From NCBI RefSeq assembly GCF_900220985.1, contig NZ_OCPC01000001.1, positions 1,094,836-1,158,835 on the forward strand: a DNA stretch of 64,000 bases, written 5' to 3'. A program made the translations under genes and the position numbers. Numbering within the stretch: the stretch's first letter is position 1; every line of letters starts with the position of its first letter. The DNA is from Parahoeflea halophila. GTDB taxonomy: Bacteria; Pseudomonadota; Alphaproteobacteria; Rhizobiales; Rhizobiaceae. The notes under the pieces are model-generated. The model was given only the letters and a program-made list of their open reading frames with translations. It had not been told where the DNA came from and did no database searches. Positions 40,170 through 42,751 of the stretch are shown piece after piece.

Positions 40170-40195
40170 ACCACCCCGGGCGGTTCCGGGGTGGT
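40170..40195 (+). other. Stem-loop between mmsA and the amidase gene
   Basis: A perfect 10-bp stem (40170-40179 with 40186-40195) with a 6-base loop and no T run. It lies in the 74-base gap within the operon. Without a T tract it is more likely an mRNA stability or processing element than a terminator. Confidence 0.5.
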
Positions 40196-40226
40196 CCGAA
40201 AACGGAACAGACCAGAGGAACCGACC

Positions 40227-41477
40227 ATGTCCGCACCCGCCGCCAACCTTCGCATCAACGCCGACAGGCTGTGGGACTCCCTCATGGAGATGGCCAAGAT
40301 CGGCCCCGGCGTGGCCGGCGGCAACAATCGCCAGACCCTGACCGACGAGGACGGCGAAGGCCGGCATCTGTTCCGCAAATGGTGCGAGCAGGCCGGCATG
40401 ACCATGGGTGTCGACACCATGGGCAACATGTTCATGACCCGGCCCGGCACCGATCCCGATGCGCTGCCGGTCTATGTCGGCTCGCACCTCGACACCCAGC
40501 CCACCGGCGGCAAGTATGACGGCGTGCTCGGCGTGCTCGCAGGCCTCGAACTGGTCCGCACGCTCAACGATCTCGACATCAAGACGAAGCACCCGATCGT
40601 CGTGGTCAACTGGACCAACGAGGAAGGCACCCGCTTTGCACCGGCCATGCTGGCGTCGGGCGTGTTTGCCGGCGTCCACACCCAGGATTGGGCCTATGAC
40701 AAGGTCGACGCCAAGGGCAAGCGCTTCGGCGACGAGCTCGAGCGCATCGGCTGGAAGGGCGACGAGGAAGTGGGTGCCCGGAAGATGCACGCGCTGTTCG
40801 AATTGCACATCGAGCAGGGGCCGATCCTGGAAGCCAAGGGCAAGGATATCGGTGTCGTCACCCATGGCCAGGGCCTGCGCTGGGTGCAATGCACCGTCAC
40901 CGGCAAGGAAAGCCACACCGGCTCCACCCCTATGTCGATGCGGCTCAACGCCGGCCGCGGCCTCGCCCAGATCACCGAGCTCGTGCACGACATCGCCATG
41001 GACAACGCCCCCAATGCGGTGGGCGCCATCGGCCATATCGACGTCTATCCCAACTCCCGCAACATCATTCCGGGCAAGGTGGTCTTTACCATCGATTTCC
41101 GCAGCCACGAACTCGACACGTTGAACGGCATGGTCGACCGGCTGATGGCGGAAGCCCCGAAACTCTGTGACGCGCTCGGCGTCAGCTTCGAGGCCGAGAT
41201 CGTTGGCCAGTTCGACCCGCCGGAATTCGACCATGGCTGCGTCAAGGCGATCCGCGACGCCGCCGAACGGCTCGGCTATTCGCACATGGACATCATCTCC
41301 GGTGCCGGCCACGATGCCTGCTGGATCAACCGCGTCGCCCCGACCGCCATGGTCATGTGCCCCTGTGTGGACGGGCTGAGCCACAACGAGGCAGAGGAGA
41401 TCACCAAGGAATGGGCCGGCGCGGGCGCCGACGTGCTCATGCATGCGGTGGTCGAGACGGCCGGGGTGGTTGAGTGA
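40227..41477 (+). CDS. N-carbamoyl-beta-alanine amidase (M20-family Zn hydrolase)
   Basis: A 416-residue M20-type amidase that hydrolyses N-carbamoyl-beta-alanine (or the thymine equivalent) to beta-alanine, CO2 and ammonia. Metal-binding stretches are seen: GSHLDTQPTGGKYDGVLG, NWTNEEGTRFAP, and the histidine in ELHIEQGP. Further conserved are GKESHTGSTPM and SGAGHDACW. AGAGGA precedes the ATG. It works after the dihydropyrimidinase hydA, which lies two genes downstream. Right after it comes the DUF559 insertion. Confidence 0.92.
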   Translation: MSAPAANLRINADRLWDSLMEMAKIGPGVAGGNNRQTLTDEDGEGRHLFRKWCEQAGMTMGVDTMGNMFMTRPGTDPDALPVYVGSHLDTQPTGGKYDGVLGVLAGLELVRTLNDLDIKTKHPIVVVNWTNEEGTRFAPAMLASGVFAGVHTQDWAYDKVDAKGKRFGDELERIGWKGDEEVGARKMHALFELHIEQGPILEAKGKDIGVVTHGQGLRWVQCTVTGKESHTGSTPMSMRLNAGRGLAQITELVHDIAMDNAPNAVGAIGHIDVYPNSRNIIPGKVVFTIDFRSHELDTLNGMVDRLMAEAPKLCDALGVSFEAEIVGQFDPPEFDHGCVKAIRDAAERLGYSHMDIISGAGHDACWINRVAPTAMVMCPCVDGLSHNEAEEITKEWAGAGADVLMHAVVETAGVVE

Positions 41478-41503
41478 TAGCGCCAGGCGCACCAGGCAAT
41501 CCT

Positions 41504-41540
41504 CCCTCCCCCTGGAGGGGAGGGATCGAGGGTGGGGGGC
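41504..41540 (+). repeat. Left 37-bp inverted repeat of the DUF559 cassette
   Basis: This sequence is the inverted counterpart of 41922-41958: 32 of 37 bases match, the five mismatches being together in the middle. Its first part is itself an 8-bp hairpin (CCCTCCCC with GGGGAGGG). It starts 27 bases past the amidase stop. Confidence 0.85.
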
Positions 41541-41545
41541 TCATT

Positions 41546-41914
41546 GTGTCACCAAGCTTGAATTCACCCAGATCCCTGGCTCGGGCGCGACAGCTTCGCC
41601 GAGCTATGACCGATGGCGAAAAGCGGCTTTGGCAGGCCTTGAAGGACTTCAGAAAACTCTATGGAATTCACGGCCGCAGGCAGAGCCCGATTGGACCGTG
41701 TGTTGCAGACTTTGCATTCCACTCAGCCAAGCTTGTCATAGAGGTGGATGGAGAGCATCATTTTACTGCGGCGGGAACTGCCCGGGACAAGAAGCGCGAT
41801 GCGTGGTTGGCGGAAGCAGGATACAGCGTGATCCGATTCAACACCGGTGAACTGGCAGAGTCCTATGATGCCTGCATCGAAAAAATACTGCATGAACTGG
41901 GGCTGATGAAATGA
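41546..41914 (+). CDS. DUF559 domain endonuclease-like protein
   Basis: A DUF559 protein, a family with a Vsr/restriction-endonuclease-like fold. Conserved stretches are RARQLRRAMTDGEKRLWQ, CVADFAFHSAKLVIEVDGEHH and GYSVIRFNTGE. The GTG at 41546, just after the left repeat, gives 122 residues; other in-frame starts are GTG 41474 (reading through the repeat and overlapping the amidase stop), TTG 41561 and ATG 41606, the last cutting into the conserved region. No strong ribosome site decides between them. It has no link with pyrimidine catabolism and is probably an inserted gene. Confidence 0.75.
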   Translation: MSPSLNSPRSLARARQLRRAMTDGEKRLWQALKDFRKLYGIHGRRQSPIGPCVADFAFHSAKLVIEVDGEHHFTAAGTARDKKRDAWLAEAGYSVIRFNTGELAESYDACIEKILHELGLMK

Positions 41915-41921
41915 TCAATAT

Positions 41922-41958
41922 GCCCCCCACCCCTATCCCCTCCCCTCCAGGGGGAGGG
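41922..41958 (-). repeat. Right 37-bp inverted repeat of the DUF559 cassette
   Basis: The inverted partner of 41504-41540 (32 of 37 matches). It begins 7 bases past the DUF559 stop and ends 31 bases before the next gene. Read on the minus strand, both copies encode a similar proline-tryptophan-arginine-glycine-rich peptide (PSPWRGG), which comes from the repeat and not from a gene. Confidence 0.85.
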
Positions 41959-41989
41959 GGACTGTCTAACCCAAGACGGAGCTAGTGCC

Positions 41990-42751
41990 TTGACCACATC
42001 AGCCAAAGTCGTGCCGCTTGAGAGCACTGACGAGAGCCAACTTCGCATAGACCTCGCAGCCGCGCTTCGCCTGGCCGCCTATTACAACTGGCACGAAGGT
42101 GTCGCCAACCATTTCTCAGCCGCCGTCTCGCCCGACGGCAGAAAGTTTCTGATGAACCCGCGCTGGAAACACTTCTCCCGCGCCCGGGCCAGTGAACTGC
42201 TCCTCATTGACGCTGATGACCCCGAAACAATGAACCGGCCGGATGCGCCCGATCCCTCGGCCTGGTCGATCCACGGCGCCATTCACCGCCGCGTGCCCCA
42301 TGCCCGGGTGGCGCTGCACCTGCACCCGCCGCATGCCACGGCACTTGCCGGGCTGAAGGACCCCTCGATCAAGCCGATTGACCAGACCACTGCGCGGTTC
42401 TTCAACCGGCTGGCAATGGACATGAGTTTCGGCGGCATCGCCAATGACGAAGCCGAGGGCGAGCGCATCGCGGCCTCCATCGGCAATTACTCCAACGTCA
42501 TGATGGCCAATCACGGTGTCACCACCGTGGCCCGGACGGTGGCCGAGGCCTTTGACGCCATGTACCACCTAGAGCGCGCGGCGCGGACCATGGTTCTGGC
42601 CTACTCGACCGGCCAGCCGCTCAATGTCATGAACGACGAGCTGGCCGAATCCGTCGCCCGTGAATGGGAAGTCTACAAGGACGCCGAATTCTCGCATTTC
42701 GAGGAAATGAAACTTGTACTCGACCGGGAGAACCCCGGCTATGCCGACTAG
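41990..42751 (+). CDS. Class II aldolase/adducin-family protein
   Basis: A 253-residue class II aldolase-fold protein. Zinc-ligand-like stretches are HLHPPHATALA near residue 104 and MANHGV near 167; YNWHEGVANHFSA is also conserved. The start is probably the TTG at 41990 (CGGAG about 8 bases upstream). Family members act as aldolases, epimerases or decarboxylases on small sugars or acids. It lies between the amidase and hydA genes, so it may serve a side product of pyrimidine or hydantoin catabolism; the reaction is unknown. Confidence 0.82.
   Translation: MTTSAKVVPLESTDESQLRIDLAAALRLAAYYNWHEGVANHFSAAVSPDGRKFLMNPRWKHFSRARASELLLIDADDPETMNRPDAPDPSAWSIHGAIHRRVPHARVALHLHPPHATALAGLKDPSIKPIDQTTARFFNRLAMDMSFGGIANDEAEGERIAASIGNYSNVMMANHGVTTVARTVAEAFDAMYHLERAARTMVLAYSTGQPLNVMNDELAESVAREWEVYKDAEFSHFEEMKLVLDRENPGYAD

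What the first reader, a model, noticed from the sequence alone, without database searches (positions are those of the whole stretch)
41504..41958. DUF559 nuclease gene framed by 37-bp inverted repeats inside a catabolic operon
Between the amidase and class II aldolase genes there is a 455-base unit with a nuclease-like gene and imperfect inverted repeats (32 of 37 matches) directly outside the coding region. The repeats are GC-rich hairpins. The unit has no functional link with its neighbours. It may be a small selfish element spread by its own nuclease, like a homing cassette, or an insertion at a repeat family.
Basis: partly seen in the sequence, partly recalled or inferred. Interest (0 to 1): 0.65.

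Follow-up and report, generated by a model that had tools for sequence, protein, structure and literature searches.

The report
Nuclease gene between DNA triplex repeats
A small gene for a likely DNA-cutting enzyme sits between two mirror-image copies of a repeat that may fold into triple-stranded DNA, and the same pairing turns up in many other bacteria, which suggests that this enzyme family is connected with how these unexplained repeats arise or spread.

Summary
A DUF559 gene (41546-41914) is enclosed by 43-nt inverted repeats, 84% complementary, that stop close to its start and stop codons. Each repeat is more than a hairpin: its tail mirrors the hairpin's purine strand, the layout of the G/C-rich intrastrand triplex motif (TM) of Holder et al. 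2015. The pairing is general. Strict inverted repeats flank 34 of 74 DUF559 genes tested in the order, 16 of 30 elsewhere in the class and 3 of 11 elsewhere in the phylum, against 0 of 225 shifted positions and 0 of 54 control genes. Genomes with DUF559 carry more such palindromes. Gene-less copies with like ends exist, one at a junction where relatives carry the gene. The predicted fold resembles Vsr and homing endonuclease I-Bth0305I. Most likely this is a TM-bounded, REPIN-like element whose nuclease acts on its own ends; that mechanism is inferred. Against recent mobility: 26 of 31 near relatives lie in the same pyrimidine operon region, 20 of 31 lack clear arms, and no target duplication was seen.

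The parts
41503..41525 (+). left arm, outer hairpin: pyrimidine strand 41503-41511, loop 41512-41516, purine strand 41517-41525
   Evidence: sequence, DNA fold
41529..41537 (+). left arm, putative third strand AGGGTGGGG, mirror image of the purine strand with T opposite A; it lies between hairpin and gene
   Evidence: sequence; general mirror test
41546..41914 (+). DUF559 gene, GTG start, 122 aa, PD-(D/E)XK/Vsr-like nuclease by family and predicted fold; conserved D, ExD and H of the family present
   Evidence: start aligned with the relative
41925..41933 (-). right arm, putative third strand GGGGTGGGG read on the minus strand
   Evidence: sequence
41937..41959 (-). right arm, outer hairpin, inverted relative to the left arm
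40191..41477 (+). upstream neighbour: peptidase-M20 family amidohydrolase (probably pyrimidine/hydantoin degradation)
   Evidence: pathway from general knowledge
41990..42751 (+). downstream neighbour: class II aldolase/adducin family

Best explanation
The unit of about 457 bp is a compact element: a Vsr-like DUF559 nuclease gene bounded by two inverted intrastrand triplex motifs (TMs), and it is the gene-bearing form of short TM-pair repeats. The most likely working is that the nuclease recognises the folded or palindromic TM ends in single-stranded or cruciform DNA and nicks there, and that repair or replication then copies TM-bounded DNA to other intergenic places. Gene-less pairs are then non-autonomous copies, and resident copies slowly wear down. 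Shown here: the anatomy, the association, the mirror covariation, gene-less copies with like ends, and the predicted nuclease fold. Inferred: end recognition, cutting and copying.
For: Strict ungapped inverted repeats (score 16 or more, within 200 bp) flank 34/74, 16/30 and 3/11 DUF559 genes at order, class and phylum level, against 0/145, 0/58 and 0/22 shifted positions, 0/26 ParE and 0/28 HIT genes. In 57 of 97 arms the tail fits the mirror of its own purine strand perfectly, against a mean of 13.8 and at most 24 in 500 shuffles of strands among arms. Tails lie toward the gene in 75 arms, away in 3, unclear in 32. The median palindrome count is 25 in 37 genomes with DUF559 and 2 in 24 without; outside the own genus, one genome per genus, 30 (20 genomes) against 2 (23), p 1.3e-4. 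In G058, gene-less units repeat the long-arm/short-arm layout of its DUF559 unit; similarly in G055. G009 holds a gene-less unit with the same ends at the junction where G001 and G005 hold the gene. Fold: DUF559 3hrl Z 14.4, I-Bth0305I Z 12.2, Vsr Z 11.2. Weaker: E. coli ycjD, a DUF559 gene, has two TM-like motifs at its 3' side.
Against: 37 of 74 order-level DUF559 genes lack arms by the gapped score and 40 of 74 by the strict one; one neighbourhood has 0 of 16. Arm type follows protein type only weakly between genera (Spearman 0.118; 46 of 1000 permutations as high). Five of 24 genomes without DUF559 still have many palindromes, and genome size and base composition were not corrected for. 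No target duplication or exact insertion boundary was seen: filled junctions hold some 24 and 29 extra nt outside the arms. Of 31 near relatives only 11 keep arms by the gapped score. E. coli ycjD is not enclosed: its TM-like motifs lie on one side, the nearer one incomplete in C600, and the flank score of two E. coli loci is 20 and 21, under the cut-off of 25. Many loci are relatives of each other, so counts are not independent. No cutting activity was tested.
Confidence: 0.5

Rival explanations
1. TM pairs are spread or formed by something else, and DUF559 genes, small mobile nucleases, tend to land between two TMs because these sites break often. The nuclease is a parasite of the repeat, not its mobiliser.
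For: Holder et al. link TMs to genome instability in E. coli (abstract and part of the discussion read). Arm type and protein type co-vary only weakly. Some genomes have many palindromes and no DUF559. The amidohydrolase/aldolase junction also holds other ORFs in relatives.
Against: Tails lie toward the gene, 75 arms to 3. In the palindrome lists of eight genomes (seven complete, G009 42 of 46) there are 6 intervals of 300-800 bp between neighbouring palindromes; 4 hold DUF559, and the other two (G009, G038) lie between unlike palindromes (the G009 one was looked at, the G038 one was not). The partial G058 list has one more such interval, not looked at. A generic landing site should hold other genes too, but this sample is small.
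Confidence: 0.25
2. DUF559 is a host-serving nuclease that clears or repairs TM structures, so genomes with many TMs keep it; TMs beside its own gene regulate its expression.
For: Palindrome number goes with DUF559 presence. Some DUF559 genes stay in one neighbourhood without arms. The near relatives stay in one operon region. Caulobacter VsrA, with a DUF559 domain, is reported responsible for an SOS response in a subset of cells that lack the methyltransferase ScmA (PMC12907096, passages read).
Against: Patchy presence: ycjD is found in 3365 of 5426 E. coli genomes, and the unit is missing from this junction in several Hoeflea genomes. Autoregulation does not explain gene-less copies with like ends.
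Confidence: 0.2
3. Ordinary intergenic hairpins such as terminators flank an ordinary gene by chance.
For: GC-rich palindromes of this kind are common in these genomes.
Against: No terminator-like site in 41300-42100; 0 of 279 control places pass the strict test; mirror covariation.
Confidence: 0.03

Closest known systems
Intrastrand triplex motif TM / TMECO (Holder et al. 2015, PMC4666352; abstract, sections 15, 18, part 1 of 20 and passages read)
   Same: G/C-rich pyrimidine strand, purine strand and mirror third strand; repeated, intergenic, in five E. coli cases an inverted pair
   Different: That paper reports no mobility activities around TMECO sites, and a word search of it finds no 'DUF' or 'nuclease'; here the pairs enclose a DUF559 gene
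REPIN with RAYT (HUH tyrosine transposase; recalled, listings)
   Same: Inverted palindrome pairs, gene-less copies, and an enzyme gene enclosed by like palindromes
   Different: Enzyme is PD-(D/E)XK/Vsr-like by fold, not an HUH transposase; the own genome has no Y1_Tnp match
CGTC-tagged REPs of alpha-Proteobacteria (PMC3733652, passages read)
   Same: Short palindromic repeats common in alpha-Proteobacteria; reported as not associated with transposase genes
   Different: Different tag; their sequences were not compared with these arms
Homing endonuclease I-Bth0305I (PDB 3r3p; its kinship with Vsr is recalled)
   Same: Predicted catalytic fold, Z 12.2 over 93 residues
   Different: Here a 122-aa protein, not in an intron, bounded by inverted repeats
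RIMEs, Sm-repeats and other rhizobial palindromic elements (PMC2573895, passages read)
   Same: Intergenic palindromic repeats of unknown function in rhizobia
   Different: Their sequences were not compared here

Membership tests
DUF559 (PF04480) | match above the curated cut-off | tested here: met
   97 bits against 20.6
PD-(D/E)XK / Vsr-like nucleases | conserved acidic active site and fold | tested here: met
   D 75/75, E 74/76, D 75/76, H 73/76; model pLDDT 88.3; Vsr Z 11.2. These show family and predicted fold, not activity
PD-(D/E)XK / Vsr-like nucleases | DNA cleavage | not testable with these tools
   no bench data for this protein
Intrastrand triplex motif (class II, purine) | pyrimidine strand, purine strand and antiparallel mirror third strand | tested here: met
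   both window arms by sequence; 57/97 arms perfect against a mean of 13.8 on shuffling
Intrastrand triplex motif (class II, purine) | forms a triplex in solution | not testable with these tools
   needs CD or NMR; the DNA fold tool shows only the hairpin
REPIN-RAYT | Y1 tyrosine transposase partner | tested here: not met
   0 Y1_Tnp matches in the own genome; no such domain in the unit
REPIN-RAYT | paired inverted palindromes with gene-less copies in the same genome | tested here: met
   own genome L108; also G058, G055, G009
Insertion sequence | transposase gene | tested here: not met
   no transposase family among Pfam matches up to E 1
Insertion sequence | target-site duplication | tested here: inconclusive
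   none seen by eye in the printed junctions; the exact insertion point is unknown
Homing cassette | empty allele with intact target, filled by precise insertion | tested here: inconclusive
   7-nt junctions exist in 3 genomes, but filled ones hold extra non-arm DNA

The most novel reading that the evidence does not exclude
A so far undescribed class of selfish element: DUF559 nucleases that recognise triplex-forming ends and have spread, with their gene-less derivatives, the G/C-rich triplex repeats found across Pseudomonadota, E. coli's TMECO included, with ycjD as a worn relative of the enzyme.
Probability: 0.35. Interest if true: 0.9.

Novelty: new variant of a known kind. Interest (0 to 1): 0.75.

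Why it matters
TMs are abundant (more than 260 bacterial genomes in Holder et al. 2015), and that paper found no mobility activities around TMECO sites; DUF559 is a family that Pfam still lists as of unknown function. A firm link gives each a candidate partner and makes both questions testable in laboratory E. coli, where ycjD and TMs coexist. It would also be a second, unrelated enzyme type for palindrome-pair elements beside RAYT.

Tried and rejected
Rejected: terminators (none found); a known Rfam RNA (best 22.9 bits against a gathering score of 71); RAYT-driven REPs (own genome 0; 13 of 61 genomes have a Y1_Tnp match); defence-system membership (PADLOC best E 1.8e-4, partial matches). The single-strand fold energy of the arms is no lower than that of shuffles (z -0.09 to -0.76), so hairpin stability alone is no evidence. 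Arm-protein covariation is weak. The claim of two or more independent arrivals in the hydantoin operon was dropped: one clade is not rejected (AU p 0.43; six rows were left out of that tree and L085 out of the group).

Limits of the tests. The gapped cut-off of 25 and the palindrome patterns were chosen after the first results. Some gapped hits in GC-rich loci are long weak alignments, so the strict test is relied on; its cut-off of 16 was set before that run, but with the arms known. ParE and HIT controls are 26 and 28 of 30 loci each; loci too short were left out, and they come from the 61 order-level genomes only. The wider gapped counts had no controls of their own. For some searches I added 28 of the 54 wider loci, picked mostly from those with a gapped match. 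The tblastn listing shows only its first 8 rows; that the G009 interval holds no DUF559 rests. In one search one neighbourhood holds two unlike DUF559 groups in different Hoeflea genomes with similar flanks; not explained.

Literature: DUF559 with 'inverted repeat' gave 0 papers and DUF559 alone 14 (listing, passages of one read). The listings show no paper that by title or abstract start links DUF559 and TMs. Passages of PMC12306157 bore nothing on it. Only an open-access library was searched; the RIME papers and the earlier triplex-motif papers cited by Holder et al. were not read.

Full report
Anatomy. The unit spans 41503-41959. A hairpin (41503-41525) is followed by a purine tail (third strand 41529-41537), a GTG-started gene of 122 codons (41546-41914), and the same arm inverted (41925-41959). 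The arms are 43 nt and 84% complementary, and nothing else in the window fits their pattern. The gene is DUF559. Its neighbours match peptidase M20, class II aldolase, an amidohydrolase (hydantoinase-like) and an ABC transporter, with an aminotransferase and an aldehyde dehydrogenase upstream; I read this as a pyrimidine-degradation operon from general knowledge. The genus is Hoeflea: three named Hoeflea loci lie on contigs of the same length as the same-genus genomes G002, G016 and G005.

What the arms are. The tail of each window arm is the mirror image of the hairpin's purine strand, with T opposite A. That is the class II purine layout of the intrastrand triplex motif of Holder et al. (PMC4666352; abstract, sections 15, 18, part 1 of 20 and passages read). 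Over 97 arms at DUF559 genes, 57 hold a perfect third strand for their own hairpin. Shuffling purine strands among arms gives a mean of 13.8 and at most 24 in 500 shuffles; parallel and reversed-tail controls give 24 each. Tail and hairpin therefore change together although arm sequences differ widely. Left and right arms of one unit, and orthologous units, are not independent here.

Generality. PF04480 was sought in 61 genomes, own genome included (37 with a match), 142 of the class (51) and 200 of the phylum (68). For the first set I took stretches around most, not all, of the listed matches; a profile search of them gave 76 DUF559 domains, the window's own among them. From the wider searches I used 54 loci, one per genome, best matches only. 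By a gapped score of 25 or more, 37 of 74 order-level genes (2 skipped) have flanking inverted repeats, against 1 of 26 ParE, 1 of 28 HIT and 11 of 144 shifted positions; one of those shifted positions is in fact a second DUF559 gene (L048). The 54 wider loci gave 2 of 7 in the family, 5 of 6 in the order, 23 of 30 in the class and 7 of 11 in the phylum (no controls there). By the strict ungapped test the counts are 34/74, 16/30 and 3/11 against 0/145, 0/58 and 0/22 shifted, 0/26 and 0/28; a matched hairpin on both sides is seen in 25, 14 and 3 of the same sets and in none of the controls. The 13 further family and order loci were not put through the strict test.

Internal contrast. Neighbour clustering shows one neighbourhood with 18 DUF559 genes, none armed in the 16 that could be tested, while 37 of the other 58 are armed (Fisher p 3.8e-6, relatedness ignored); some of these genes do have palindromes on one side only. 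Genomes with DUF559 have more palindromes: median 25 against 2 (37 and 24 genomes); with the own genus left out and one genome per genus, 30 against 2 (20 and 23). Exceptions without DUF559 but with many palindromes are G011, G025, G028, G037 and G041. Genome size and base composition were not corrected for.

Gene-less copies. The own genome has a short pair with the same hairpin-out, tail-in layout (L108). In G058, 11 fetched gene-less pairs share the long-arm/short-arm layout of its DUF559 unit; for some the likeness runs further out. In G055 the likeness of eight aligned units ends, by eye, at the outer hairpin edge. G009 has one solo family like the window's arms and one like the block beside its own DUF559 genes. 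In G009's aldolase/hydantoinase junction lies a gene-less unit whose ends match the DUF559 unit that G005 carries there, with a short stretch resembling the gene's 3' end; I read it as an internally deleted copy.

What lies between palindromes. In the lists of eight genomes (G000, G038, G050, G053, G054, G055, G060 complete; G009 42 of 46) there are 6 intervals of 300-800 bp between neighbouring palindromes. Four hold DUF559. The G009 interval lies between unlike palindromes and holds no DUF559 match (part of it reads, from recall, like a glycyl-tRNA synthetase gene). The G038 interval, also between unlike palindromes, was not looked at, nor was one in the partial G058 list.

The locus in relatives. 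Junctions of 17 Hoeflea genomes were printed. The unit with its DUF559 is in G000, G002, G010 and G016. G003, G008 and G013 have a 7-nt junction. G014 has a different DUF559 there (36% identity). The others have other ORFs or gaps. G011 keeps a stretch like a worn right arm (score 22 against at most 17 in 500 block shuffles). The genome-contig scan gave 45 loci; I examined the 31 nearest (56-85% identity). Of these, 26 have the M20 amidohydrolase or hydantoinase gene within about 3 kb, all printed hits in the direction of DUF559, and 11 keep arms by the gapped score. Three of the 31 are Hoeflea. So this copy is more likely an old operon passenger with repeated loss than a recent arrival.

E. 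coli. The DUF559 gene ycjD lies between sapF and fabI in strain C600 and is found in 3365 of 5426 genomes. At its 3' side are two TM-like motifs in inverted arrangement, the nearer one complete in one strain and incomplete in C600, and between them a stretch resembling the 3' end of ycjD (my reading). ycjD is not enclosed, and its flanks score 20 and 21 in two strains, below the cut-off. In strain C7 an efflux gene cluster occupies the sapF-fabI interval instead.

Protein. The catalytic positions are nearly invariant. The model (pLDDT 88.3, pTM 0.81) matches DUF559 3hrl (Z 14.4, 90 residues, rmsd 1.7), homing endonuclease I-Bth0305I (Z 12.2, 93, 2.8) and Vsr (Z 11.2, 98, 2.0). A DUF559 protein of Caulobacter, VsrA, is reported responsible for an SOS response in a subset of cells without the methyltransferase ScmA (PMC12907096, passages read), which suggests that a member can damage DNA in vivo.

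Conclusion. The association is firm; the mechanism (end recognition, cutting, copying) is inferred and has rivals. Filing: a DUF559 member by test; not a RAYT system, and without the transposase of an insertion sequence, by test; works like a REPIN-type element in anatomy.

Noticed in passing
L372 (G011) 1596-1990, also the G001, G006, G007, G012 junctions: A small coiled-coil-like ORF (67 aa in G011, no Pfam match) sits in the same amidohydrolase/aldolase junction in five Hoeflea genomes; the junction seems to gain small genes of several kinds.
   Followed up: partly
L036 and L087 and their relatives: One conserved chromosomal neighbourhood carries either of two unlike, unarmed DUF559 genes in different Hoeflea genomes, never both in the set seen.
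   Followed up: partly
L050, L055, L063, L066, L068, L073, L074, L075, L076, L100: A second gathering place of armed DUF559 genes (11 genes, 10 armed by the gapped score), with two or more in G014 and in G006.
   Followed up: no
L382 2880-3140: Between the two TM-like motifs beside E. coli ycjD lies a stretch resembling the 3' end of ycjD, perhaps a remnant of a second DUF559 gene.
   Followed up: no
L109, L110 (own genome) and L289, L301 (G009): Some palindrome pairs have the opposite, tail-out arrangement; how they relate to the tail-in pairs is open.
   Followed up: no
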